Of a stretch of DNA of 35,741 bases, positions 7,337-20,768 are shown piece by piece. The position numbers and the translations under genes were made by a program. The DNA lies in NCBI GenBank assembly GCA_030045755.1, contig JASIEW010000067.1:1-35741 (forward strand), read 5' to 3'. The stretch's first letter is position 1, and every line of letters begins with the position of its first letter. This DNA is from Nitrososphaerales archaeon. Its GTDB lineage: Archaea; Thermoproteota; Nitrososphaeria; Nitrososphaerales; UBA183. The notes under the pieces were generated by a model. That model was not told where the DNA came from. It searched no databases and saw only the letters and a list, made by a program, of their open reading frames with translations.

Positions 7337-9487
7337 CTAGTATTTGGCCAGCTCCGCGGCAGTCCTCACGATCCGCTCTTTGCTGGGGATGTAGGCGTCT
7401 TCAAGCTTCGCGAGAGGCACGACTGTGTCGTAGCCGGTGACGCGCCGTATCGGAGCTTTGAGATAGTCCAGGGCCTTGTCAGCGATTGTCGCAGCTATTT
7501 CGGATCCGAGCCCGAGCGTCCGCGGCGCTTCGTGGACGATGACGACCCTGCCGGTCTTCTTCACTGAAGAAAGGACGGTCGCAAAGTCGAGAGGCGTTAT
7601 CGTTCGAAGATCTACGACTTCGGCCGAGATCGACTGGGCCTGGAGTTCCTCTGCGGCGAGAGAGGTGGGAACCATCATCGCGCCGTACGATATGATCGTC
7701 AGGTCGTTTCCCTCTCTTACGACCCTCGCCTTGCCTATCGGTATCGAGTACTCCTCCTCGGGCACGTCCATCTTGGGCGAGTCGTAGAGCCTCTTCGGTT
7801 CCATGAATATGACCGGGTCGGGCTCCTTGAGCGCCGAGCTCAGAAGGCCCTTCGCGTCGTACGGATTCGACGGGATCACCACTTTGAGGCCCGGCGTGTG
7901 GGCGTAGTAGGCTTCGGGCGAGTCCGAGTGATGCTCCGGTGCCCTTATGCCTGCTCCGTATGGGAACCTGATCACTCCGCGGGGGACGAACCTGCCGCGC
8001 GTTCGGTTTCTCATCCTTGCGACATGCCCGAATATCTGGTCGAAAGCAGGTAGTGTGAATCCCTCGAACTGGAACTCTGCCACGGGCACCATCCCTCCCG
8101 CGGCGAGTCCGACGAACATCCCTGCGATGCACAGCTCGGCTAGCGGTGTGTCGAACACGCGGTCGCGTCCGAACTCGTCCTGGAGCCCTCTCGTGACCTG
8201 GAAGACTCCTCCATTCTTTCCTACGTCTTCCCCAAAGAGGACCACCCGCTCGTCGCGCGCCATCCCTTCTCTCAGAGCCATGTTGACGGCGTTCCTGATG
8301 TTGACGCCCGGCCTCCCGCCGGTCACCACTGCTTCAACGGGCCCCGTTCCTGCCCCCTCCGGGAGCGCGCCGAAGGCTTGGGCCTTCTGGTCTGCGAGCT
8401 CGGCCGTCAGAGACGAATACATGTAGTCGAACATTACCGAAGGGTCGGGCGTGGTTGTGGCTCTGTACGAGGCGACAGCGTCTTCCATCCTCTTTTGTGC
8501 TGCGAGAGCCACGGCCTCCTTCTGCTTGTCGTCCATCAGTCCCTTCGACCGGAGATAATTCTCAAGCCTTGTGATGGGGTTGCGCTTCTCCCACTCCGCG
8601 ACCTCTTCAGGGGCCTTCAACTTGTTCGAGACGAGCTCTGCGGTGGTGTGCGGACCCATCCTGTAGGTGGAGTACTCGATCAGCGTAGGCCCGCCTCCCC
8701 GCCTGGCCTTGTCCGCCGCGTACTTGGTGGCCTCGTACGAGGCTATCACGTCGTTCCCGTCCACCAGTATCCCTTCGAATCCGTATGCAACGGCCTTCTG
8801 CGCCATCGTCTTCGCGGCAGTCTGCTGGTCCCGCTTTACCGAGATGGCCCACTGGTTGTTCTCTACCCCGAAGACCACAGGGAGGTCGTAGACCCCCGCG
8901 AAGTTCAGCGCCTCGTGGAAGTCGCCCTTCGAAGTGCCTCCGTCGCCCGTGGTGACCAGCGTGACGGACTTCTCCCCTCTCAGACGCCTCGCCATCGACA
9001 GCCCGACTGCGTGTGGAAGCTGCGTGGCGACAGGGACAGCCAGTGGGAGCATGTTGAGGTCCTCGGGGATCTGCATACCCCTCTCGTCTCCTCCCCAGTA
9101 CTGCAGGAGCTTGACCGCGGGCATCCCGAAGGCGAGCATTCCTGCCGAATCCCTGTACATCGGGACGTACCAGTCGTTCTTCTCCAGGGCGCTGACGAAA
9201 CCGATCTGGCAGCCCTCTTGCCCTTTTCCAGGAGCGTACGTGCCAATCTCCCTGAGCGTCGAAAGGTTGCTCGCCTTCTCGTCGAAGACCCTGCCGAACA
9301 CGAGCCTTTCGTAGAAGGTCCTAAGCTGTTCAGGAGACAGACTGGGTTCCTTCCCTCTGAGCGTCCCGTCCGGCCTCAGCCGTTGGTAGAGCACTTCGGA
9401 CAGGTCGGTGAATCTGAAGTCTGCTTCACTGAAGATCCGGGGGACAGCGTCAGCTCCCGAGCTCTTTTGGAACTCTGACTCGGTCAA
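7337..9487 (-). CDS. 2-oxoacid dehydrogenase E1, fused alpha and beta subunits
   Basis: 716 residues. E1 decarboxylates a 2-oxoacid with thiamine diphosphate and acylates the E2 lipoyl arm. Residues about 50-370 are E1 alpha: the ThDP/Mg motif starts at TGDGGTSKGDFHEALNFAG (about 180) and ends at VENN (about 211). Residues about 395-716 are E1 beta, with VVLFGEDVGKNGGVF, RVFDTPLAELCIAG and HHSDSPEAYYAHTPGL. Alpha and beta are usually separate genes in archaea and Gram-positive bacteria; here they are one frame with no stop. The alpha part resembles pyruvate-type E1 (YAPGKGQEGCQ, YRMGPHT). Start is TTG 9487, about 27 bases below a TTATAA box, so a leaderless message is likely. Confidence 0.93.
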   Translation of the reverse strand: MTESEFQKSSGADAVPRIFSEADFRFTDLSEVLYQRLRPDGTLRGKEPSLSPEQLRTFYERLVFGRVFDEKASNLSTLREIGTYAPGKGQEGCQIGFVSALEKNDWYVPMYRDSAGMLAFGMPAVKLLQYWGGDERGMQIPEDLNMLPLAVPVATQLPHAVGLSMARRLRGEKSVTLVTTGDGGTSKGDFHEALNFAGVYDLPVVFGVENNQWAISVKRDQQTAAKTMAQKAVAYGFEGILVDGNDVIASYEATKYAADKARRGGGPTLIEYSTYRMGPHTTAELVSNKLKAPEEVAEWEKRNPITRLENYLRSKGLMDDKQKEAVALAAQKRMEDAVASYRATTTPDPSVMFDYMYSSLTAELADQKAQAFGALPEGAGTGPVEAVVTGGRPGVNIRNAVNMALREGMARDERVVLFGEDVGKNGGVFQVTRGLQDEFGRDRVFDTPLAELCIAGMFVGLAAGGMVPVAEFQFEGFTLPAFDQIFGHVARMRNRTRGRFVPRGVIRFPYGAGIRAPEHHSDSPEAYYAHTPGLKVVIPSNPYDAKGLLSSALKEPDPVIFMEPKRLYDSPKMDVPEEEYSIPIGKARVVREGNDLTIISYGAMMVPTSLAAEELQAQSISAEVVDLRTITPLDFATVLSSVKKTGRVVIVHEAPRTLGLGSEIAATIADKALDYLKAPIRRVTGYDTVVPLAKLEDAYIPSKERIVRTAAELAKY

Positions 9488-9519: not shown

Positions 9520-10413
9520 CTACCCTGACTTCCGACCACTTTCGACAATCGTCTTCATGAAGACCTCGCCAGCGCGATAGCTGCTCCTGACAAGAGGTCC
9601 TGATGCGACATATCTGAATCCGATGCCCTCTCCCAGCTCCTTGTAGCGCCGGAACTGAGAAGGGTGCACGTACTCCGCGACCGGAAGGTGGCGCGGAGAC
9701 GGCCGGAGATATTGTCCGACAGTGAGGAAGTCCACTCCGACATTCCTCAGGTGGGTCATGGCCTGAAAGACCTCCTCCTCCGTCTCGCCCAGCCCTACCA
9801 TTATGGATGACTTCGTGTAGACGCGGCGGTCGAGCTTCTTGACGTCTCGGAGCACCGAGAGCGACTGCCAGTAGTGCGCCCTGGGGTCCCTCACCCTCGA
9901 AGTGAGGAACATCGTGGTCTCGATGTTGTGCGCCACGACGTCCGGGCCCGACTCGACTATGGCTCGGACCGAGTCCAGGTCGCCTTGGAAGTCCGGTATG
10001 AGCACCTCCACCATCAGTTCGGGGACCCTCTCCTTGATTGTCCGGATCGTCTTCGCGAAGTGCGAAGCGCCGCCGTCGGGAAGGTCGTCCCTGTCGACCG
10101 AGGTCAGCACGATGTATGACAAACCCATCCGAGACAGCGCGAAGGCCACGTGCTCAGGCTCGAACTCGTCGAGAGCCCCGTTTGGCCTTCCAGGAGTGAC
10201 CATGCAGAACCTGCACGCGCGCGAGCACACGTCGCCCATGAGCATGAGCGTTGCCGTCCCGCCGCCCCAGCACTCGTGAACGTTGGGACAGTGGGCCTCC
10301 TCGCAGACCGTGTGCAGGCCCAGATTCCGGAACAGGTCCTTGAGCTCGTGGTAGTTCTCCCCTTCTGAAGGGGAGACAGTCAGCCACTCCGGCTTGGCTT
10401 CGACTGCTGTCAT
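9520..10413 (-). CDS. lipA: Lipoyl synthase LipA
   Basis: 297-residue radical SAM enzyme that inserts two sulfurs into the protein-bound octanoyl chain. Both iron-sulfur clusters are visible: the auxiliary cluster CEEAHCPNVHEC and the radical SAM cluster CSRACRFCMV. The C-terminal RSSY signature is in VRSSYRAGEVF. Length is typical. ATG 10413 shares one base with the stop of the upstream regulator (TGATG), so the two are coupled. With LipB it modifies the E2 lipoyl domain encoded downstream. Confidence 0.96.
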   Translation of the reverse strand: MTAVEAKPEWLTVSPSEGENYHELKDLFRNLGLHTVCEEAHCPNVHECWGGGTATLMLMGDVCSRACRFCMVTPGRPNGALDEFEPEHVAFALSRMGLSYIVLTSVDRDDLPDGGASHFAKTIRTIKERVPELMVEVLIPDFQGDLDSVRAIVESGPDVVAHNIETTMFLTSRVRDPRAHYWQSLSVLRDVKKLDRRVYTKSSIMVGLGETEEEVFQAMTHLRNVGVDFLTVGQYLRPSPRHLPVAEYVHPSQFRRYKELGEGIGFRYVASGPLVRSSYRAGEVFMKTIVESGRKSG

Positions 10414-10838: not shown

Positions 10839-10867
10839 TTTGATATTACGTATGTTATACTCCCTCC

Positions 10868-10878
10868 GTTTATTAAAC
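10868..10878. promoter_or_regulatory. Near-palindromic TATA element shared by two divergent genes
   Basis: The 11-mer GTTTATTAAAC is nearly its own reverse complement. Its centre is 36 bases before the helicase start (TTG 10909) and 35 bases before the regulator start (ATG 10838). On either strand it could act as a TATA box with a leader of about ten bases. Between it and the regulator lies another near-palindrome around TTACGTAT (10846-10853), a possible operator for autoregulation. Confidence 0.45.
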
Positions 10879-10908
10879 CTAGTCAGGGGGTTTTGTCTGA
10901 TCTCCCCA

Positions 10909-13776
10909 TTGGCCGAGCAGAACGTCTTCCAGAGCCTCTCCCCTCCTCTCGTCAAGGCGCTCAGTGAGAGAGGCTTCACGTCGCCCACCGACCCTCAGGC
11001 CAGGCTGTTCCCGATCGTCCAGTCCGGGCAGAACGCTCTCCTGATGGCGCCGACGGGCACAGGCAAGACCGAGGCGGCGGTGCTCCCCATCTTGGATCGG
11101 ATACTCCGGGAGGATGATCAGAGGGGCAAGGGGACGAAGCTGCTGTACATCACGCCTCTCAGAGCCCTGAACAGGGACATGCTCGAGAGGATGCAGTGGT
11201 GGTGCAAGCGCTTTGACATAAGGCTCGGCGTCAGGCACGGTGACAGCTCGCAGGCGGAAAGGACGAGCCTCAGCTTCGCCCCTCCCGAGATTCTGATCAC
11301 GACGCCGGAAACGCTCCAGATCCTTCTGGTCGGCAGGAGACTCAGACAGAACCTCGCGAAGCTCAGATGGGTCGTGGTCGACGAGGTCCACGAACTGGCG
11401 GAGGACAAGCGTGGAAGCCAGCTCAGCGTAGGCATCGAGAGGCTGCGCGATGTGGCCGAAAAGGAGTTCCAGATCATAGGGCTGTCGGCCACGGTGGGTT
11501 CGCCCGAAAGGGTGGCGCAGTTCCTGGTCGGGAACGGCCGGAAGTGCGTGGTGGTCAGGGTGCCCGTCGAGAAGTCCATGGCGCTCAGCGTGGTCACGCC
11601 AAGGGCCACGGGCGAGGACAAGATACTCGCAGAGGCGATATACTCCTATCCTGAAGTCGCCGCAAGGCTTCGCACGATACGGGAGATAGTCGAGAAGTAC
11701 AGGTCGGTCCTGATTTTCACGAACACCAGGACGGAGGCGGAGGCGCTCTCGAGCAGGTTCAGGGTCTGGGACCCGGAGTTCCCCATCGGCATCCACCACA
11801 GCTCTCTCTCGAAGGCCATGAGGGAGGCGGTGGAGCGGCAGTTGAAGGAGGGGACGCTACTTGGCGTCATATGTACCAGCAGCCTCGAACTGGGCATAGA
11901 CATCGGATTCCTAGAGTACGTCGTCCAGTACAACTCGCCCAGGCAGGTGACGAGGCTCGTCCAGAGGGTGGGCAGGAGCGGGCACAAGGTGGGCGAGGTC
12001 TCGAACGGGCTCGTGATGACCCAGGACTCCGATGACACGCTGGAGGCCGCCGTTCTTTGCAGGAGGACGATGGTCGGAGAGATCGAGCCTCTCGAGCCTG
12101 TGATGGAGCCGTACGACGTAGCGATCCACCAGGTCGCAGGGCTCCTCATAGAGCAGAGCAGCTGGAACCTCTCTGACATCGAGGCGCTACTTCGCAGAAG
12201 CTACGCTTACTCGGACATGCAGAGCGAGAAGCTGAGGAAGGTCCTGACCTACATGCGGGAGAGGTACCCGAGGCTGGCGTTCTTCTCCGAGTCCGACGGA
12301 AAGGTCATCAGGGCTCGCGACGTGAAGCCTCTGTTCCAGTACTATTTCGACAACCTCTCGATGATACCGGACGAGAAGCAGTATCTCGTGATGGAGGGCG
12401 GCAGCTTCGTCGGGACCTTGGACGAAGCGTTCGTCTCGGAGTATGGCGAGGTCGGCGTAAAGTTCGTCGAAGCTGGGAGATGCTGGAAGGTGGAACAGGT
12501 GTACGGGAACAAGGTGTTCGTCAAGTCGGAAGACGACCCCACCGGGGCCGTCCCGAACTGGGTGGGCGACGAGATTCCGGTGCCGAGGGAGGTCGCCACA
12601 GAGGTCGGCTCCCTGAGAAGGAGGTACGGGGAGGCGCTTGCAAAGGGCGAAGAGACGAACTACCTCAGGGAGCTGGCCGCCACATATCCTATCTCTCCGG
12701 AGACAGCGCAGGAGGCGCTGAAGGAGGTGGAAGAGCAGCAGGCCGCGGGCCTGCCCATACCCTCCGAGAAGCTCGTCACCGTGGAACGCTGGGACAAGTA
12801 CGTGGTGGTCCAAGCTTCCTTCGGCCACAAGGTCAACAGGCTTCTAGCGAGAGTCCTAGGCCACCTGATCTCTGAAAGGATCGGCCAGTCGGTGGCCGTC
12901 CATCAGGACCCCTACAGAATGGTCATAGAAGCCGAGGTCGCACCGTCTACCGTCCTTTCGCTGATGCAGGAGCTCCACGCGCTCGACCTCAGGCTGACGA
13001 CGGAGAAGGCCCTGGAGAGAAGCGGGATCTTCAAGCGGCGGCTGATCCACGCGGGAAAGAAGTGTGGGGCGATAGCGAAGGACGCGGACTTCGCGAGCGT
13101 CTCGATCTCAGGGTTGATCGAAGCGCTGCGAGACACGCCGGTCTACGAAGAGGCCATGAACATGATCTTCCACGACGACCTGGACCTGGACGGGACAAAG
13201 GACGTGGTTGACAAGATGAATTCCGGCGCGATCGAGGTCAGGCTCGTGGAATACGACGGGCTGACCCCCATAGCCCGGATAGGGGTCGAAGAGATCAGCA
13301 GGCGCGGGGAGTTGGTCTCCCCGGAGAGGCTCAGGGCCCTTCTAAGGCAGTCCACGGGTGCCAGGATAAACGACACTTTCCTTGTCGCCGTCTGCTCGAG
13401 CTGCTGGAACTTCCTCGAGCTCAAGAGGGTCAGGGACCTGGACGGACTGGACAAGTGCCCGACTTGCGGGAAGGTCGCGATAGGTCTATCCACCGACTCC
13501 TATGAGAACGTCTTCTCGTTGGCGATGAAGGCCCGGAGCAGGACCGACATCAGAGGAAAGTGGCTCAAGCTCGTGGAAGGGGTGAGGAAGTCGGCAGAGC
13601 TGCGGAGGGAGTACGGCCATGCCATCGACATGCTGATCGCAGGGCGAGGAATAAGGCTGGCTGAGGCGGCCGCGCTGGCTTCGAAGAACAGGACGGAAGG
13701 CACAGACCTGGTCGAGCTGATCATCGAAGGCGAGAGGGAGGCGTTGAAGAGGCGCTACTTCTTCGGGGCTTCCTGA
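10909..13776 (+). CDS. lhr: Lhr-family superfamily 2 helicase (copy 1)
   Basis: About 955 residues from TTG 10909; the upstream 23 codons of the open frame cover the promoter and look non-coding. Lhr helicases are ATP-dependent 3'-5' translocases linked to DNA repair, and in some archaea to RNA. Motifs: ATP-binding APTGTGKTEAAVLPILD, DEVH box in VVDEVHELAEDKRGSQL, motif III GLSATVGSPE, motif IV LIFTNTRTEAE, and motif VI VQRVGRSGHKVG. The Lhr-specific C-terminal half follows, ending in a four-Cys zinc site (CSSCWNF with CPTCGK). It converges with the KITE gene, overlapping its end by 22 bases. It is paralogous to the helicase at 17206. Confidence 0.93.
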   Translation: MAEQNVFQSLSPPLVKALSERGFTSPTDPQARLFPIVQSGQNALLMAPTGTGKTEAAVLPILDRILREDDQRGKGTKLLYITPLRALNRDMLERMQWWCKRFDIRLGVRHGDSSQAERTSLSFAPPEILITTPETLQILLVGRRLRQNLAKLRWVVVDEVHELAEDKRGSQLSVGIERLRDVAEKEFQIIGLSATVGSPERVAQFLVGNGRKCVVVRVPVEKSMALSVVTPRATGEDKILAEAIYSYPEVAARLRTIREIVEKYRSVLIFTNTRTEAEALSSRFRVWDPEFPIGIHHSSLSKAMREAVERQLKEGTLLGVICTSSLELGIDIGFLEYVVQYNSPRQVTRLVQRVGRSGHKVGEVSNGLVMTQDSDDTLEAAVLCRRTMVGEIEPLEPVMEPYDVAIHQVAGLLIEQSSWNLSDIEALLRRSYAYSDMQSEKLRKVLTYMRERYPRLAFFSESDGKVIRARDVKPLFQYYFDNLSMIPDEKQYLVMEGGSFVGTLDEAFVSEYGEVGVKFVEAGRCWKVEQVYGNKVFVKSEDDPTGAVPNWVGDEIPVPREVATEVGSLRRRYGEALAKGEETNYLRELAATYPISPETAQEALKEVEEQQAAGLPIPSEKLVTVERWDKYVVVQASFGHKVNRLLARVLGHLISERIGQSVAVHQDPYRMVIEAEVAPSTVLSLMQELHALDLRLTTEKALERSGIFKRRLIHAGKKCGAIAKDADFASVSISGLIEALRDTPVYEEAMNMIFHDDLDLDGTKDVVDKMNSGAIEVRLVEYDGLTPIARIGVEEISRRGELVSPERLRALLRQSTGARINDTFLVAVCSSCWNFLELKRVRDLDGLDKCPTCGKVAIGLSTDSYENVFSLAMKARSRTDIRGKWLKLVEGVRKSAELRREYGHAIDMLIAGRGIRLAEAAALASKNRTEGTDLVELIIEGEREALKRRYFFGAS

Positions 13777-14318
13777 GCCCTTGAGAGTATCATGGTCATG
13801 AGGGTCTTCTCGTCGACCTCGGCCCTCGTTCTCCACCCGATGTGAATCATCGCCTTGTCGTCCTGCTCCAGATAGCCCCTCTTCACGTATCTGTCGAGGG
13901 AGTACTCCACTCTCCACTTCGGGAACTTCTCCCTCAGGAACCGCTCGACCTCTCTTCTCGCCACCCTAGCCTGCTTGGCGTTTACGAAAGCTATCGTGGC
14001 GGCTAGCACGGCCAGGTCGTCGATTCTGATCCCCGAGGTCTCTGCCTCGCTGATGGTAGGCGGTTCCTTGAACCTCAGCAGAAAGCGCGAAGAGTCGTCC
14101 GTGCCCTCCGGGCCCTTTACCTCGAAGACCTCGAGGCCCATCGGCGCGACGTCCTCCGAGAGCACCTCCAGTATCGACCGGAAGTCCTTGCCGAGATGCC
14201 GTTTCATCTCCCACCCCTTGACCCCCGGGTTGCGCCCCCTCTGCAGCACGAGGGTCTGGAACGCCTTCCTCACCTTCCGTTCGAGGAGAGCCCGGTCGGC
14301 CTGATCGACCTCTGTCAT
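13755..14318 (-). CDS. KITE / MAGE-Nse3-like winged-helix subunit of an SMC complex
   Basis: 187 residues, third gene of the SMC operon, starting at ATG 14318 inside the kleisin stop (ATGA). Two winged-helix units are apparent: residues about 10-75 (VRKAFQTLVLQRGRNPGVKG onward) and about 95-165 (DDLAVLAATIAFVNAKQARV onward). The second ends RYVKRGYLEQDD then IHIGWRTRAEVDE, which closely resembles the end of eukaryotic Nse3/MAGE domains (tyrosine-leucine strand, then a WGPRA-E-like segment). ScpB of bacterial condensin has the same tandem winged-helix plan, so plain ScpB is the alternative. KITE dimers bind the kleisin and DNA. The MAGE-like call is by eye and rests on the C-terminal motif plus the Smc5-like partner. 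Confidence 0.75.
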   Translation of the reverse strand: MTEVDQADRALLERKVRKAFQTLVLQRGRNPGVKGWEMKRHLGKDFRSILEVLSEDVAPMGLEVFEVKGPEGTDDSSRFLLRFKEPPTISEAETSGIRIDDLAVLAATIAFVNAKQARVARREVERFLREKFPKWRVEYSLDRYVKRGYLEQDDKAMIHIGWRTRAEVDEKTLMTMILSRAQEAPKK

Positions 14319-15079
14319 GCTTCCACGTTCACAGGTATTGCGACCGACTTCGGAGGCGAGGTCGCCTTTTCGCTGAGCGCGACGACCCATATCTTGCCAG
14401 TGAGAGGCTCGGTCTTCAGCGTCGCCCTGCCCTCGCTGATGAGGAACGCCAGCAGGTAGGACCTTCTCACTCTCTCTTCGTATGTGTCCGCATCGATGAA
14501 CTCCCGGTAGTCGATCCACTCTCCGTTCGACTTCGCCGTCAGCTCGTCGGCGAGGCCCCTGAGAGTCGTTTCGAACTGTTGTTGCGTGAACACGCCCATG
14601 CTCACGAGTTCGGCGTAGTCGACGACTCCAGGCAGGGTCCCGTGGCTTCCGAACTGGTCCTTGAACCTCTCGGACATGGGCCGGAGGTCGCGCCAGTACA
14701 CGAAGGCTCTCTCGAGGCCCTTGGGAGAGATCTGGTCCAGCTGGGCTACGGGGTGCCAGCTCTTGATGAACGCCTCGGAGAGCGCGTCCTTCGATAGGAG
14801 CTTGATCTTGAGCTGCACGAGGAGGGGGTCGATGTAGAGCGAAGAGGCCCTGTGCTTCAGCCATTCGTCCTGCAGCCTCACTATCTGGGCGAGTTCGAGC
14901 ATGGCCTCTGAGTCTACCAGCAGGTCCTCGAGGAGCTTCCACTCGGGGAGCCGCTCCCTTAGGAGCTGTATCTTCTGCTTGATGTCCACGTCGAACGGGT
15001 TGGCTGAGCTCGACTCGACCGAGCGGCACAGCTCGATGACCCTCAGGACTTCCTCCAGTTTCTTATCTTCCAAGTTCAC
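14315..15079 (-). CDS. Kleisin (ScpA/Nse4-like) subunit of an SMC complex
   Basis: 254 residues from GTG 15079, whose bases overlap the ATPase stop (GTGA); the open frame continues upstream only as a shadow of the ATPase gene. Kleisins bridge the two SMC heads and hold the KITE subunits. The N-terminal third is helical (LEDKKLEEVLRVIELCRSVE). The C-terminal winged helix contains RRSYLLAFLISEGRATLKTE, which fits both the ScpA C-terminus and the Nse4 C-terminal 'SFLV-(K/R)-(D/E)-G' block. Position and coupling make the role convincing; similarity alone would be modest. It is shorter than eukaryotic Nse4 and close to bacterial ScpA in size. Confidence 0.75.
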   Translation of the reverse strand: MNLEDKKLEEVLRVIELCRSVESSSANPFDVDIKQKIQLLRERLPEWKLLEDLLVDSEAMLELAQIVRLQDEWLKHRASSLYIDPLLVQLKIKLLSKDALSEAFIKSWHPVAQLDQISPKGLERAFVYWRDLRPMSERFKDQFGSHGTLPGVVDYAELVSMGVFTQQQFETTLRGLADELTAKSNGEWIDYREFIDADTYEERVRRSYLLAFLISEGRATLKTEPLTGKIWVVALSEKATSPPKSVAIPVNVEA

Positions 15080-17112
15080 TTGAGCTCCCTGACTTCGGTC
15101 GCGCCGTGCACCGCCTGGACCGTGATGACATGGGCGCTCTTGTCGAAGACCGTGAGTATCGAGGGCGTGATTACGAGGTACTGCGAGGCCTCGCGCTGCC
15201 TCATCTGGCCGAGAATCATCTTGAACATCGCCTCCCTGTTCTTCGGGTCCATGTGGATGTCGAACTCGTCCATCGCCCGGAGGGGCGAAACTATCCTCGC
15301 CTGGAGAGAGAGTATGAAAGCCATCAGAGCCACGGAGCGTTCCCCCCCGCTCTGTGTGAAAGGGTCGAGGGTCGTGGGAGAGCCTCCCCTGAAGCCTACG
15401 TAGAGGTCGATGCCCGCGTCGTCGACTTCTGCGCCTTCCTCGAACTTCACGAATCCGTTCGCGTCCGCCGCGCCCAGCACCGTCCTGTAAGGCATGTCTA
15501 TGGACTCGACCAGGTCCTCGATCGCGCGCCTCCATACGCCTCTCCTCGCCTCAAGCTCCGAGAGCATGGCCCTCTTGTTCTCCTGCAGCTGCGACAACCT
15601 TAGCTTGAGCTCCTCGATGTTGCCCGAGTAGTCATTGTAGATTTTCTCGGCGTCGTCAGGCACGTCCTGCATCTTCTGGATGTGGGCGGAGACGAGCTTG
15701 AGCTCCTCTGAGACTTCGTAGGGCTGCCTGAGAGTCTCGACTCGGGCCCCGGCCTTTTCCAAGTCTGGTGCCATCTTCTCCAGCTCGGCCCTGTATTCCC
15801 TGGCGCTTCTTTCGAGGTCGTGTAGGTCAGACTCCGTGACCTTCGCCCTGTACGTGAGCACCTCGAATTTCACTCTGAACGAGACATAGCTCTCCATCGT
15901 TCTTGTCACGAGCTCGTCTATCCTTCCAATGTCCTGTTGCAGGGACGAGACCTCCCTGTCCAGTTCTCCTCTCCGTCTTTGGGCGTCGTCCTCCGCCGAA
16001 GAGCTCTTTCGTTCCATGTAGGAGACGACTTCCTTCAATCTGGCCGCGGACTTCTCCGAGCCAGAGGAAGTCAGGTTTTGGACCGCGCTCGACAGGCTTG
16101 CCAAGTCATCCTTCATGCCTTTGTAGACGGACTTGGCGGACTCGTCCTTCGCCTTCTCAGCCTCGGCCCTTACGAGCGCGCCGTACAGCTTTCTGAGCTC
16201 GACCTGCTTGTCGAGCAGGGTCTCGTGTGTCTGACCTGCATCCTTCTCGGCCTCGGCTTGCTGCGACTTCAGGTCGTCGAGGGTTCGGGTCTTTGTCTTG
16301 ACCTTCTCCTCGACGGACTCGAGCGACTTCGTGAGTTTTGCCTCGCTGCTCCAGAGAAGCTCCTTGGCCAGGAGGCCACGGTGCTCAATGAGCCTTCTCT
16401 TCTCTTGATACCTGTCGTAGATTTGCTTCCAGTATTCGAGGGCCTGGTTCGCGTTGTCGATGAGCTGCAGGAGCGAACTCTCCTCGCCCACCAGTCCGCT
16501 AAGCTCCTGCTCGGCCTGGAGGATCCGCTGCCTGTACTCCGAGAATCCGACCGCCTCTTCCACCATCCTCAGGCGCTCCTGGGGAGTTACCGCCCCCAGT
16601 TCCTCTATCATCCCCTGATGCATTATGATGAGGAGGTTGTCCGGGTTGATGCCGAACTCCTTGAGGAGTCTGACCACCTCGCTCTTGTCGATTTCTTTGT
16701 AGTCCGCTTCGAACCAGTAGGAGCCGTCGCGTCTAAGATAACGGCTCAGCATGAACGTGTCGGACTTCGAATACGGGATGGGCCGCCTGCCGCTCTTGGG
16801 AGAGTTGTCGAAGACAAGCGAGACCCTCGCGATGTCTTTCCCCCGCCTTATGAGGTCGGAGAGCTTCCGCGACCGCTCGGTGTAGGCCTGTCCGAAGGCT
16901 ACCGATATGGCCAACAGGACCGAAGACTTCCCGGCGCCGTTGGGACCGACGATGAGGTTGAGCCCCCCTCGGAGTGGGACTCTGGCGTATTCGTAGCTCA
17001 TGAAGTTCTCAAGAATGATTTCTTTCACCGTCGTGAGGTGGACGGGCCTCTCTTTGGAGACCTCTTCGACGCGCTTCGACAAGACTCTGGACGCAAGTTC
17101 GACGACGCGCAT
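15076..17112 (-). CDS. Compact Smc5/6-like ATPase
   Basis: 678 residues from ATG 17112 (an in-frame TAA precedes it). The N-head has KEIILENFMSYEYARVPL and Walker A GPNGAGKSS (about 56-64). The middle (about 190-530) is heptad-like coiled coil. The C-head has signature QSGGERS (about 587-593), Walker B in SPLRAMDEFDIHMDPKNRE, and SQYLVITPSIL near the end. The stretches NFMSYE, GIDLYVGFRGG before the signature, DEFD-MD-NRE and SQYxxITP are typical of Smc5/Smc6 heads rather than Rad50 or condensin Smc. It is about 60 percent of normal SMC length; I see no hinge-like domain in the coil and no Cys residue, so no zinc hook. It probably entraps or tethers DNA with the kleisin and KITE encoded downstream. 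Confidence 0.85.
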   Translation of the reverse strand: MRVVELASRVLSKRVEEVSKERPVHLTTVKEIILENFMSYEYARVPLRGGLNLIVGPNGAGKSSVLLAISVAFGQAYTERSRKLSDLIRRGKDIARVSLVFDNSPKSGRRPIPYSKSDTFMLSRYLRRDGSYWFEADYKEIDKSEVVRLLKEFGINPDNLLIIMHQGMIEELGAVTPQERLRMVEEAVGFSEYRQRILQAEQELSGLVGEESSLLQLIDNANQALEYWKQIYDRYQEKRRLIEHRGLLAKELLWSSEAKLTKSLESVEEKVKTKTRTLDDLKSQQAEAEKDAGQTHETLLDKQVELRKLYGALVRAEAEKAKDESAKSVYKGMKDDLASLSSAVQNLTSSGSEKSAARLKEVVSYMERKSSSAEDDAQRRRGELDREVSSLQQDIGRIDELVTRTMESYVSFRVKFEVLTYRAKVTESDLHDLERSAREYRAELEKMAPDLEKAGARVETLRQPYEVSEELKLVSAHIQKMQDVPDDAEKIYNDYSGNIEELKLRLSQLQENKRAMLSELEARRGVWRRAIEDLVESIDMPYRTVLGAADANGFVKFEEGAEVDDAGIDLYVGFRGGSPTTLDPFTQSGGERSVALMAFILSLQARIVSPLRAMDEFDIHMDPKNREAMFKMILGQMRQREASQYLVITPSILTVFDKSAHVITVQAVHGATEVRELK

Positions 17113-17205: not shown

Positions 17206-20052
17206 GTGTTGTCGTCGGGCAGCTCCTTTGAGGCGCTCGCTCCGGCCGTCAGAGCGCTACTTGATGAGACAGGCTTCACGAATCCGACTCCGCCTCAGGC
17301 GAAGGCCTGGCCGCTGATTTCGAGGGGCGAGAACGTGCTCGTCGTCGCTCCGACAGGGTCTGGAAAGACGGAGGCCGCCCTCCTCCCGCTACTGAGCAGG
17401 CTCGTGACCGAAGGGCGCGGCGAGGGGATATCCATGCTCTACATCACGCCGATGAGGGCCCTGAACAGGGACATGCTCAGGAGGCTGCAGATATGGTGTG
17501 GGAAACTGGGCCTCAGCGTAGACATCAGGCACGGGGACACGCCCCAGAGCCAGAGGGCGAAGCAGTCGGCCCACCCCCCGGACGTGCTGGTCACTACCCC
17601 CGAGACGTTGCAGGCGATCCTCCCAGGGAGGCGGATGAGAGAGAATCTGTCCCACCTGAAGGCGGTGGTGGTCGACGAACTGCACAACCTAGTGGAGAGC
17701 AAACGTGGGGTCCAGCTTTGCGTCGGCCTCAACAGGCTCGGCAAGGTAGCGCCAGACTTCCAACTGGTCACGCTGTCCGCCACAGTCGGGAGCCCTGAAG
17801 TCGCCGCCAGATTCATCTTCGGAGACAAGAAGTGCACAGTCGTAAAGGCCGAAATTCCGAAGGAGTTCACCTACGCCATCGAGTATCCCGTGCCTGACCC
17901 TTCCAGCAAGTCTGCCGCAAGGGAGACCTACTCGGCTCCTGACCTTGCGGCTAGACTGACGAGGATCAACGACGTGATAGAGTCTCACACGTCGACCCTG
18001 ATCTTCGTGAACAGCAGGACAGTCGCCGAGATGCTTGGAGAGAAGTTGGCGAGGCTGAGGAAGGACGTGGGAGTCCACCATGGGTCGCTGCCCAGGGAGG
18101 AGAGGGAGAGGGTGGAGCAGGCGTTCAAGGACGGTCAGTTGAAGGCACTGGTCTGCACGAGCACTCTGGAACTCGGGATAGACATAGGGTCGGTCGACCT
18201 GGTCGTGCAGTACATGTCTCCAAGACAGGTGACCGGCCTCGTCCAGAGAGTGGGGCGTAGCGGCCACAGACTGGGAAGAGTGTCCAAGGGTGTCCTTCTG
18301 GCTGTGTCGGCAGACGACGTTCTCGAGTCGACGGCGAGCGTGGTGTGCGCATCGCAGGGAAGAATAGAGCCGACCAGGCCCTATTCGAACTCGTTGGACG
18401 TGCTGGCGCACCAGGTAGCGGGATACCTGATGGACTTCGAAACGATGGAAGCCGACGCGCTGTACGAGCAGGTGAGACTCGCCGCGCCATTTCGCGACCT
18501 TCCAAAGGAGAGCTTTCTCAGGACGGTCGGGTACCTCGCGGAGTTGGGGAAGATCAGGTTCGACCAGAAGCGACTGTACAGGACAAGGATGACCAGGGAC
18601 TACTACTATGAGAACCTCTCGATGATACCGGACGAGACCAGGTATCTGGTAGTTGATGTGTCGACCAACCAGACCGTGGGCATACTGGGCGAGGAGTTCG
18701 TCCTTCTTCGGGCAAAGAAGGGAGTGCATTTCATCTGCAAGGGCAAGATATGGCAGATCGAGCAGATAGCCGAAGACAGAAAGATCTACGTGACGCCTGT
18801 CGAGGACCCGCTGGCAGCGCTGCCCGGTTGGGACGGCGAGATGCTCCCCGTACCTTATGGCTTGGCAACCGAGACTGGTCGGCTCAGGCGGATGATATCT
18901 GACGCCCTTGACGCTGGAGAAGGAGCCGTGGAGAGGACACTGGAAGCGCTGCCCGGCGACCCGGCCGCCAAGGCGCTCGCGGTGGACGAGATTGCCGAGC
19001 ACAAGAAGATGGGCGCGGCCGTGCCCTCGGACAATCTGGTCCTTTTCGAAGGCTTCGGCAAGTATCTGATAGTCCACCTGTGCTTCGGGGAGTCGGTGAA
19101 CCGGACATTCGCCTATGTCTTCGAGGAAATCCTGTCCCGAAGGGGCCTTGTCAGAGTCTGGTGGCTCGATGGGTACAGGCTCCTTGTCGAGTTGACTGCG
19201 GACACGGAAGACCTCGACCTGAGAGCGATGGCCAATGAACTCACGGGACTGAAGCCCGAGGAGCTCGAGAGGACATACGCGGTGGCCGCGCAGAGGAACT
19301 TCCCGTTTCCCGCCAGGGTCAAGTACGTGGCCGAAAGGTTCGGCGCCCTGAAGAGGGGGAAGCTGATCGCCCACCCCAACCTGTGCTCTCTTCCGACGCG
19401 CTTCGAAAGGACGCCGATCTTCGAAGAAGCCCTCCAAGAGACAGGAAGGGACCTCATCGACATGGAGGCGAGCAAACGTATCTTGATGGCTGTCCAGAGA
19501 GGAGAGATTGCGGTCGAGACCTACTTGGCCGGCGACAAGCCCACGCCAATCGCGTACGGCCTGCTCTACAAGTACCTCGAAGTCCCCGAGGCCGTGGCCC
19601 CCGACTCGCTCGGCAAGTCGTCATACCAGAGGATGAAGGCGAGCATCTTCTCGACCGATGTCAGCCTGCTCTGTGTCAAGTGCGGGACCGACCAAGGAGT
19701 GGCGACGGTCGGCGAGTTAGCGGAGGAGCCCAAGTGCTCCGCATGTGGCTCGGGGCTTCTCGCGCCCTGCTACTGGGGAACGGAGAAGCTCGCCGACCTC
19801 ATCGTGAAGCGCGACGCCAAAGTGCATCTGGACGAAGAAGAGAGGGCCGAGCTCTCGAAGGCAAGGAGGTCGGCCGACCTCGTCCTGTCCTACGGGAAGA
19901 AGGCCGTAGTGGCTCTCAGCGTCTATGGAATCGGCCCTCAGACCGCTTCGAGGATATTGGCGGAGATGCACGACGACGAAGAGATATTCTACAGGGACCT
20001 GCTCGAGGCGAAGATCAGGTTCGTCACTACGAGGCAATTCTGGGGTAACTAG
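17206..20052 (+). CDS. lhr: Lhr-family superfamily 2 helicase (copy 2)
   Basis: 948 residues from GTG 17206. Motifs: VVAPTGSGKTEAALLPLLS (ATP binding), DELH box in VVDELHNLVESKRGVQL, motif III TLSATVGSPE, LIFVNSRTVAEML, and VQRVGRSGHRLG. The Lhr C-terminal region follows, with a zinc site (CVKCGTD with CSACGSG) and a last segment, SVYGIGPQTASRILAEMHD, that looks like a helix-hairpin-helix. It parallels the helicase at 10909 along its length but diverges clearly in sequence, so it is an old paralogue rather than a recent copy. It is divergent from the SMC operon and followed on the same strand by an unknown protein and a phosphoesterase. A DNA repair role is inferred. Confidence 0.93.
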   Translation: MLSSGSSFEALAPAVRALLDETGFTNPTPPQAKAWPLISRGENVLVVAPTGSGKTEAALLPLLSRLVTEGRGEGISMLYITPMRALNRDMLRRLQIWCGKLGLSVDIRHGDTPQSQRAKQSAHPPDVLVTTPETLQAILPGRRMRENLSHLKAVVVDELHNLVESKRGVQLCVGLNRLGKVAPDFQLVTLSATVGSPEVAARFIFGDKKCTVVKAEIPKEFTYAIEYPVPDPSSKSAARETYSAPDLAARLTRINDVIESHTSTLIFVNSRTVAEMLGEKLARLRKDVGVHHGSLPREERERVEQAFKDGQLKALVCTSTLELGIDIGSVDLVVQYMSPRQVTGLVQRVGRSGHRLGRVSKGVLLAVSADDVLESTASVVCASQGRIEPTRPYSNSLDVLAHQVAGYLMDFETMEADALYEQVRLAAPFRDLPKESFLRTVGYLAELGKIRFDQKRLYRTRMTRDYYYENLSMIPDETRYLVVDVSTNQTVGILGEEFVLLRAKKGVHFICKGKIWQIEQIAEDRKIYVTPVEDPLAALPGWDGEMLPVPYGLATETGRLRRMISDALDAGEGAVERTLEALPGDPAAKALAVDEIAEHKKMGAAVPSDNLVLFEGFGKYLIVHLCFGESVNRTFAYVFEEILSRRGLVRVWWLDGYRLLVELTADTEDLDLRAMANELTGLKPEELERTYAVAAQRNFPFPARVKYVAERFGALKRGKLIAHPNLCSLPTRFERTPIFEEALQETGRDLIDMEASKRILMAVQRGEIAVETYLAGDKPTPIAYGLLYKYLEVPEAVAPDSLGKSSYQRMKASIFSTDVSLLCVKCGTDQGVATVGELAEEPKCSACGSGLLAPCYWGTEKLADLIVKRDAKVHLDEEERAELSKARRSADLVLSYGKKAVVALSVYGIGPQTASRILAEMHDDEEIFYRDLLEAKIRFVTTRQFWGN

Positions 20053-20084: not shown

Positions 20085-20768
20085 TTGGTTCTAGCCGGGA
20101 AGGTGTTCCTCGTTCGGGAAAGCTACGACATGGACACTCTCGCGGAGAAGCTGAAGTCGTTCAGAGTCGAGACGGAGACGAGCGTCGAAGAACAGGAGTT
20201 CAAACTCGTTACAGAGATAGACAACCTGAGCATTGGGAAGTCCGCGCTCGAAGGGACCTTCTCCTTTGACATGGTGTTCGTCGTGAGGCACAGGGGGAAA
20301 GCGGTGCCGGTGCCCAGGACGTACGAGGCTCCCTTCTCGTTCAACGTGCACAAGGACAGGCTCTTTCTGACTGTGTATGACAAGAAGACCAGGGCGAACA
20401 GCGCGGCTAACGAGATGAGCAAAGCAGTCTTCATGAGCCTGGGACAGGTCGTGGAGGCGAGAATCGAGCCCGAGACTCTGAGGAAGTTCCACGAAGCGAA
20501 CTTCCAGGACACGAAGGTAGTCTTCTACTCTGACGTCGACCTGCCCAACATCAGCAAACTCTCGCTCTACGGCGCGGAGCTCGGTAACACGGGACTGTAC
20601 GCGGACTACCTGACCCACGGCAAGCTTTGGTACATCGTATTCACGAGCAAGGCCTACGGCTACGTAATCGGCCTCACCAGGAACTGCATAGTCACCGCGT
20701 TCAGCAAGATGGAGTTGCCTGAATTCAAGACCTTCGTGAGCAGCCAGGTATTTCCTCTGATAGCCTAG
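20085..20768 (+). CDS. Unknown soluble protein downstream of Lhr
   Basis: 227 residues from TTG 20085, 32 bases after the helicase stop. Start choice is supported by a GGAGG ribosome-binding site at 20071-20075 with normal spacing, and a TTGATAAA sequence at 20053-20060 could also serve as TATA box. No signal peptide, membrane helix or catalytic motif is recognised. The sequence alternates strands and helices (FSFDMVFVVRHRGKAVPVP, WYIVFTSKAYGYVIGLTRN) and reads as a compact alpha/beta fold. I do not know the family. Position between a helicase and a phosphoesterase suggests, weakly, a nucleic-acid role. Confidence 0.75.
   Translation: MVLAGKVFLVRESYDMDTLAEKLKSFRVETETSVEEQEFKLVTEIDNLSIGKSALEGTFSFDMVFVVRHRGKAVPVPRTYEAPFSFNVHKDRLFLTVYDKKTRANSAANEMSKAVFMSLGQVVEARIEPETLRKFHEANFQDTKVVFYSDVDLPNISKLSLYGAELGNTGLYADYLTHGKLWYIVFTSKAYGYVIGLTRNCIVTAFSKMELPEFKTFVSSQVFPLIA

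What the first reader, a model, noticed from the sequence alone, without database searches (positions are those of the whole stretch)
13755..17112. A compact archaeal Smc5/6-like operon: Smc5-type ATPase, kleisin and MAGE/Nse3-like KITE
Three minus-strand genes are coupled by stop-start overlaps (GTGA and ATGA). The ATPase head carries NFMSYE, GIDLYVGFRGG before QSGGERS, SPLRAMDEFDIHMDPKNRE and SQYLVITPSIL, a set typical of eukaryotic Smc5/Smc6. The third gene ends with GYLEQ...IHIGWRTRAEVDE, which looks like the end of the Nse3/MAGE domain, and the kleisin C-terminus resembles Nse4 as well as ScpA. If confirmed, this is a minimal archaeal relative of Smc5/6 with one ATPase in place of two. 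I cannot tell how much of this has been described before.
Basis: partly seen in the sequence, partly recalled or inferred. Interest (0 to 1): 0.9.

Follow-up and report, generated by a model that had tools for sequence, protein, structure and literature searches.

The report
Archaeal Smc5/6-type complex lacking a hinge
Three overlapping archaeal genes appear to encode a stripped-down relative of Smc5/6, a eukaryotic machine that protects chromosomes, with one motor protein instead of two and apparently no hinge, so the origin of that machine may become testable in archaea.

Summary
In detail: three minus-strand genes with 4-bp overlaps (13755-17112) encode a 678-aa SMC-type ATPase, a 254-aa and a 187-aa protein. 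A 28-sequence ATPase profile ranks Smc5 and Smc6 above every other PDB sequence. A Rad50-rooted head tree puts the archaeal ATPases with Smc5/6 at 100/98, outside canonical SMC. Of 35 family members, 19 relatives of the second protein match Pfam Nse4_C and none ScpA. Of 36, 9 and 8 relatives of the third match MAGE and Nse1; ScpB is not among the 25 of 26 families shown. Gene order holds in 68 of 73 loci; the KITE occurs in 157 of 398 genomes of one archaeal phylum. Some Asgard genomes carry longer operons of this plan, at least one with a hinge. The ATPase branch is in print as 'SMC5/6-related' SMC. I found no account of its Nse4- and KITE-like partners, its missing hinge, or a recurring Lhr-like neighbour (21 of 72 loci). 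Likeliest function, inferred: an ATP-driven DNA clamp at damaged forks. New variant of a known kind.

The parts
15076..17112 (-). Smc5/6-type SMC ATPase, 678 aa, no hinge or zinc hook detected (no cysteine at all)
   Evidence: Pfam SMC_N 119 bits; PDB best = Smc5, for the deep profile Smc5 and Smc6; no CxxC in the arms of 38 of 38 family members, window included
16924..16947 (-). Walker A GPNGAGKS (residues 56-63)
   Evidence: translation; seven of the eight residues invariant
15487..16497 (-). Two short coiled-coil arms without a recognisable hinge between them (about residues 206-542; 247-368 residues in 38 members)
   Evidence: no SMC_hinge match for this protein nor among the families shown for 28 members; boundaries approximate, coiled coil inferred
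15334..15354 (-). ABC signature QSGGERS (residues 587-593)
   Evidence: translation; alignment
15259..15285 (-). Walker B and catalytic Glu PLRAMDEFD (residues 610-618)
   Evidence: translation; D615 and E616 invariant; role of E616 by homology
14315..15079 (-). Nse4-like kleisin, 254 aa, GTG start overlapping the ATPase stop
   Evidence: Pfam Nse4_C in 19 of 35 family members, this protein itself not among them; PDB profile search Nse4 E 5e-5
14375..14584 (-). Kleisin C-terminal winged-helix domain (residues 166-235)
13755..14318 (-). KITE-like winged-helix protein, 187 aa, no cysteine, hence no RING
   Evidence: Pfam MAGE in 9 and SMC_Nse1 in 8 of 36 family members, this protein itself not among them
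14049..14300 (-). First winged helix of the KITE (residues 7-90)
13833..14024 (-). Putative second winged helix of the KITE (residues 99-162)
   Evidence: secondary-structure order only (pLDDT under 55); barely tested
10840..13776 (+). Lhr-type helicase ORF, convergent, overlapping the KITE stop by 22 bp
   Evidence: Pfam DEAD, Helicase_C, WH_Lhr, DEAD_assoc; convergent Lhr-like frame in the fetched flank of 21 of 72 other loci
17206..20052 (+). Second Lhr-type helicase ORF, divergent, upstream of the ATPase
   Evidence: Pfam WH_Lhr, DEAD_assoc; same arrangement in L001

Best explanation
The operon encodes an archaeal SMC-kleisin-KITE complex of the Smc5/6 branch. Probable make-up: two copies of the ATPase, one Nse4-like kleisin and two copies of a single KITE that stands where eukaryotes use Nse1 and Nse3. 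By homology, ATP joins the two heads, the kleisin bridges the neck of one ATPase and the cap of the other, and the KITE dimer presses DNA onto the joined heads, so the complex is an ATP-driven DNA clamp. Because these ATPases have short arms and no detected hinge or zinc hook, I expect dimers held mainly by the heads and kleisin. The likely task is holding or repairing damaged replication forks or recombination intermediates, alongside the neighbouring Lhr fork helicase (this last step about 0.4). Shown by computation: gene order, conservation, family kinship, absence of a recognisable hinge. Inferred: stoichiometry, clamping, fork role.
For: ATPase: the ten best PDB sequences for the 28-sequence profile, constructs of four proteins, are all Smc5 or Smc6 (234-182 bits); next Smc at 165, Rad50 at 48. 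Tree of 47 heads rooted on two Rad50: {21 archaeal, 6 Asgard, 3 eukaryotic Smc5/6} 100/98; canonical SMC 95/85. Kleisin: Nse4_C in 19 of 35 members (best E 3.5e-7); PDB Nse4 5e-5 and EID3 7.7e-5 against ScpA 0.07-0.1. KITE: MAGE 9/36 and Nse1 8/36. Operon kept in 68 of 73 loci. KITE in 157/398 genomes of a phylum and 113/151, 35/150 and 17/81 of three classes. Convergent Lhr-like frame in 21 of 72 loci; archaeal Lhr acts on forks (PMC7437997, abstract).
Against: KITE evidence is weak hit by hit: best Pfam E 1.2e-4; best PDB E 0.044, tied with a designed repeat protein at 0.053; model pLDDT 51. The window's own second and third proteins match no relevant family alone; kinship shows through relatives. 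With the single ATPase as query, one Smc6 (9lwi_A, 56 bits) ranks below several other Smc proteins. No interaction was tested. The Lhr link may be mere synteny: 51 of 72 loci lack it in the fetched flank. Order inside the Smc5/6-type clade is weakly supported (87-91). A hinge too divergent for Pfam is not excluded.
Confidence: 0.85

Rival explanations
1. It is an ordinary archaeal Smc-ScpAB condensin whose subunits have drifted.
For: KITE and kleisin folds are shared with ScpB and ScpA, which are the top fold rows; the best NCBIfam row for the ATPase is SMC_prok_A at 156 bits.
Against: That score is far below its cut-off of 729. The AU test rejects grouping with canonical SMC, p 0.021. A hinge-bearing SMC sits elsewhere in 5 of 21 KITE-bearing genomes of the phylum, one of the five a weak match, so the operon coexists with it there. 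ScpA is not among the 14 families matched by 35 members; ScpB not among the 25 of 26 families shown for 36.
Confidence: 0.06
2. It is a Rad50-, ASRP- or RecN-like repair ATPase with two unrelated winged-helix partners.
For: No hinge detected and short arms; Rad50 profiles give 45-68 bits.
Against: No CxxC hook in 38 of 38 arms; AU rejects grouping with Rad50, p 0.0006; ASRP 40 bits of a 300 cut-off, RecN 20 bits of 408 (neither was put in the tree); kleisin relatives match Nse4_C.
Confidence: 0.04
3. It is an SMC-based anti-plasmid or anti-phage system (Wadjet or Lamassu type).
For: SMC-kleisin-KITE operons such as JetABC look alike; PADLOC lists LmuB (51 bits) and JetC (43 bits) rows for the ATPase.
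Against: The PADLOC rows are 62 mostly generic ATPase families, best mad3 at 98 bits, and none match the second or third protein at E 0.001; no nuclease gene in the operon; broad distribution with one match in 110 of 113 positive genomes of one class.
Confidence: 0.05

Closest known systems
Eukaryotic Smc5/6 complex (Smc5, Smc6, Nse4, Nse1, Nse3)
   Same: ATPase head clade, Nse4_C-type kleisin, KITE with kinship to MAGE/Nse3 and Nse1
   Different: One ATPase gene and one KITE gene in the operon; no hinge detected; short arms; no cysteine and so no RING in the KITE; no Nse2, Nse5 or Nse6 gene in the operon
[quoted passage not shown]
   Same: Probably the same branch of ATPase; their sequences were not compared here
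   Different: PMC9389158 has no occurrence of 'kleisin' or 'operon'; the 2021 paper itself was not held, so its species list and any remark on partners or hinge are unseen
Bacterial and archaeal Smc-ScpA(B)
   Same: SMC-kleisin-KITE plan
   Different: Canonical head clade, hinge, ScpA and ScpB families; archaeal ScpA reported not to bind ScpB (PMC7055376, passages read)
Hinge-less SMC of ocean metagenomes (PMC12153180, passages read)
   Same: SMC-type ATPase without hinge
   Different: Assigned there to Actinomycetes, with a viral origin discussed; 'kleisin' does not occur in that text; no comparison with the present family was made

Membership tests
Smc5/6 complex | ATPase head in the Smc5/6 clade | tested here: met
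Smc5/6 complex | Nse4-type kleisin | tested here: met
   Nse4_C in 19 of 35 members, E up to 0.1, best 3.5e-7; PDB profile E 5e-5
Smc5/6 complex | KITE of Nse1/Nse3 (MAGE) type | tested here: inconclusive
   9 and 8 of 36 members match MAGE and Nse1 at E up to 0.1, best 2.7e-4 and 1.2e-4; fold rows tie with ScpB and others
Smc5/6 complex | Two distinct SMC paralogues, Smc5 and Smc6 | tested here: not met
   One ATPase gene in the operon; a second one elsewhere cannot be excluded for the window, whose genome is not held
Smc5/6 complex | SMC hinge domain | tested here: not met
   No SMC_hinge in P0001 at E up to 1, in L146, L119, L005 at E up to 0.01, nor among the 25 of 68 families shown for 28 members; met in Asgard L167 (E 1.3e-13)
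Smc5/6 complex | Subunits physically associate | not testable with these tools
   Needs co-purification
Smc5/6 complex | Nse2 SUMO ligase, Nse5/6 | not tested
   Only the operon and near neighbours were examined; no such gene there
Canonical Smc-ScpAB | ScpA-family kleisin | tested here: not met
   ScpA not among the 14 families matched by 35 members
Canonical Smc-ScpAB | Canonical SMC head clade | tested here: not met
   AU p 0.021
Rad50 | Zinc hook CxxC and Rad50 head clade | tested here: not met
   0 of 38 arms with CxxC; AU p 0.0006
ASRP (coalescin, Sph) | NCBIfam ASRP equivalog score | tested here: not met
   40 bits against a cut-off of 300
Wadjet (JetABCD) | JetA, JetB and JetD proteins | tested here: not met
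   No PADLOC match for P0002 or P0003 at E 0.001; seven neighbouring window ORFs scanned with Pfam show no Toprim protein

The most novel reading that the evidence does not exclude
The three-gene complex is the surviving pre-duplication form of eukaryotic Smc5/6: a homodimeric ATPase, one Nse4 and one KITE, inherited from the archaeal ancestor, with the hinge kept in some Asgard versions and lost in the Thermoproteota ones. In many Thermoproteota it is the only SMC-kleisin-KITE machine in the cell and works without a hinge as a fork-guarding clamp with Lhr.
Probability: 0.4. Interest if true: 0.95.

Novelty: new variant of a known kind. Interest (0 to 1): 0.85.

Why it matters
The origin of Smc5/6 is an open question: its ATPases were traced to archaea, but not, as far as my ten literature searches show, its kleisin and KITE. 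A three-gene archaeal system with all three core subunits would mean that the whole core, not just the motor, predates eukaryotes. [quoted passage not shown] Crenarchaeota are described as lacking condensin (PMC10769869, passages); in 16 of 21 KITE-bearing genomes tested here no SMC hinge was found, so this may be the only such machine of some archaea.

Tried and rejected
Only the kleisin C-terminal domain is trustworthy, and no complex could be modelled. Foldseek-derived rows outside the SMC field (PurR, MarR, SarX and others) tie with many KITE and kleisin rows.

Shallower profiles gave nothing significant in the PDB: the 9-sequence KITE profile had an unrelated surface antigen first (0.31), then a ubiquitin hydrolase (0.35) and MAGE-G1 at 0.38; the 10-sequence kleisin profile had Nse4 at 0.042 beside troponin C and an ScpA N-terminal piece at 0.045-0.046. 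The kleisin result became significant only with 35 sequences; the KITE result never did.

The Lokiarchaeota CR_4 locus (L007) and its like (L145) looked at first like a full-length version. The L007 ATPase is nearer Smc3/Smc4 and its KITE gives a weak ScpB row (E 0.018), so I set both aside as a separate, canonical-like system.

Pfam Nse4_C searched directly in 227 genomes of the Asgard phylum found 7 weak matches, none over cut-off, and one weak match in the Thermotoga control; I use it only as the way to locus L177. Of the 11 Asgard KITE matches (of 225 genomes), six (L171-L176) are weak (genome E 3.5e-5 to 3e-3). The middle genes at L166 and L171-L176 show no kleisin similarity to my profile, and those of them scanned with Pfam (L166, L171, L172, L174, L175, L176) no kleisin family; I call them kleisins only by position.

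The first tree (51 rows, no Rad50) left the deep split at 61/91. For the second I dropped six long-branch rows (L166, L171, L172, L173, L177, L007) and added two Rad50; only 21 of the 38 archaeal ATPases were used in either. Holding archaeal plus Asgard rows together without eukaryotes was borderline (p 0.0499), so I do not claim which archaeal group is nearest to eukaryotes.

A control search of the KITE profile in 4 other genomes (2 bacterial, Micrarchaeota, Nanoarchaeota) found nothing, and the tool warns that this shows nothing by itself. Profile-profile comparison of kleisin with KITE found no kinship.

Full report
What is there. Three minus-strand genes lie at 13755-17112 with GTGA and ATGA overlaps: a 678-aa ATPase, a 254-aa protein and a 187-aa protein. 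Alone, the ATPase matches SMC_N (119 bits) and the other two match nothing of note. Those listed relatives that bear a name come from Nitrososphaerales and kin, so the window is probably from that archaeal group; this is an inference, as the window's own genome is not held.

The ATPase. Among PDB sequences the single protein hits Smc5 first (112 to 90 bits), then one Smc6 (86), then other Smc proteins at 67 and below, with Rad50 at 34; the other Smc6 in the list (9lwi_A) comes lower, at 56. A profile of 28 diverse family members sharpens this: the ten best distinct sequences, constructs of four proteins, are all Smc5 or Smc6 at 234-182 bits, then prokaryotic Smc at 165, Smc2 at 142 and Rad50 at 48. 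A tree of 47 ATPase heads rooted on two Rad50 rows has a clade of 21 archaeal, 6 Asgard and 3 eukaryotic Smc5/6 rows at 100/98, next to a canonical SMC clade at 95/85. Inside it, archaeal plus eukaryotic rows join at 88/91 and the Asgard six at 87/89, which is weak. Holding the archaeal rows with canonical SMC is rejected at p 0.021 and with Rad50 at p 0.0006. A first tree without Rad50 and with six long-branch rows resolved the deep split poorly (61/91).

No hinge found. The Smc5 alignment to the profile stops at residue 448 and resumes at 622 (8i4v), which from general knowledge is where the hinge lies. SMC_hinge was absent from P0001, from L146, L119 and L005 and from the 25 of 68 families shown for 28 members. 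The stretch between the head halves holds 247-368 residues in 38 ATPases, none with a CxxC hook, so each arm helix is at most about half that. Neither of the two usual SMC/Rad50 dimerisation modules was found.

The third protein. In 36 members (A6), MAGE matches 9 and SMC_Nse1 8, best E 2.7e-4 and 1.2e-4. The best PDB row of the profile is a MAGE chain of an Nse1-Nse3-Nse4 complex at E 0.044, tied with a designed repeat protein at 0.053. The low-confidence model's first half best matches ScpB, with MAGE, ScpB and Nse1/3/4 chains among ties that also include PurR and MarR. Similar likeness to Nse1 and Nse3 fits a single KITE from before their split; this is an inference. The protein has no cysteine, so it cannot carry the RING of Nse1.

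Spread. The KITE profile A4 hits 157 of 398 genomes of the phylum of a Bathyarchaeota genome; profile A6 hits 113 of 151 of that class, 35 of 150 of the class of G345 and 17 of 81 of the class of G287. In 73 loci with a KITE, 68 keep ATPase-kleisin-KITE on one strand in this order within 400 bp; the exceptions are L114 (a longer gap), L115 and L117 (KITE alone), L121 and L140 (no ATPase found). Those loci are the 30 best matches, 39 that I chose from the other 127, three named loci (L001, L002, L005) and the window; L078 is the same operon as L005, and in the 30 only the C-terminal part of the ATPase was in view. Of 21 KITE-bearing genomes of this phylum, 5 show an SMC hinge anywhere, one of them weak, so 16 may have no canonical SMC; genome completeness was not given, and one of the 21 (G254) showed the KITE alone.

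Asgard archaea. Eleven of 225 genomes of the phylum of Lokiarchaeota CR_4 match the KITE profile, six of them weakly, and all eleven fetched regions have an SMC ATPase, a middle gene and the KITE in line (L166-L176, with a 750-bp gap in L166 and the L169 ATPase cut by the contig end). The middle gene matches the kleisin profile in L167-L170 only. L177, reached through a weak Nse4_C match, has an SMC-like gene, a 322-aa gene and an Nse4_C-like gene (E 1.3e-3). The L167 ATPase (831 aa) has an SMC_hinge (E 1.3e-13), and a hinge match lies at the same operon in G483; the other Asgard ATPases scanned (L166, L171, L174, L175, L177) showed none. G482 and G483 also have a second, longer frame with a hinge, presumably canonical SMC.

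Neighbours. Two Lhr-type helicase ORFs flank the window operon, one convergent and overlapping the KITE stop by 22 bp. A convergent Lhr-like frame lies downstream in the fetched flank in 21 of 72 other loci; in L096 and L100 it is over 1 kb away, and in L142 the match is weak. Lhr-like sequence also lies beside two Asgard operons (L174, L175). Archaeal Lhr prefers forked DNA and gives a phenotype like Hel308 and RecQ in a genetic assay (PMC7437997, abstract read).

Mechanism. By homology with Smc5/6, two ATPase heads joined by ATP, bridged by the kleisin, would clamp DNA under the KITE dimer. [quoted passage not shown] Without a hinge the complex may be better at holding DNA than at reeling it in. 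The fork role rests on the Lhr neighbour and on Smc5/6 biology, and is the least certain part (about 0.4).

What is known. PMC9389158 (passages and one section read) tells of archaeal 'SMC5/6-related' SMC grouped with SMC5 and SMC6, citing Yoshinaga and Inagaki 2021, which is not held. PMC10003631 repeats it (passages). Ten literature searches listed no paper whose title or abstract start tells of an archaeal Nse4 or Nse1/Nse3 partner; only open-licence papers were searched and ten were opened, none whole. A hinge-less SMC group of ocean metagenomes exists (PMC12153180, passages), with no kleisin mentioned. So the motor branch is known and the rest appears new as far as I could look.

Noticed in passing
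window 20085-20768 (+): A 227-aa ORF without a Pfam match at E 0.01 lies beyond the operon's upstream helicase; relatives lie upstream and divergent in 12 of 72 loci and in L003. A conserved neighbour of unknown function.
   Followed up: partly
window 13755-14318 (-): Some relatives of the KITE are named 'SEC61-beta family protein' in public records, perhaps from a sub-threshold Pfam match like that of the window protein (E 0.059); probably a misannotation.
   Followed up: partly
L007:5992-10628; L145:2954-7327: Lokiarchaeota carry a second full-length SMC followed by two short genes; in L007 the SMC is closer to Smc3/Smc4 and the last gene weakly to ScpB: possibly a separate Asgard SMC-kleisin-KITE operon.
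   Followed up: partly
L174, L175, L176: Asgard SMC ATPases with an SSGEK signature lacking the usual SGG; L174 and L175 also have an NFMC motif as in yeast Smc6.
   Followed up: no
window 9520-10413 (-) and 7337-9487 (-): Lipoyl-synthase-like radical SAM protein and a fused dehydrogenase E1 (E1_dh plus transketolase domains) beyond the convergent helicase.
   Followed up: no
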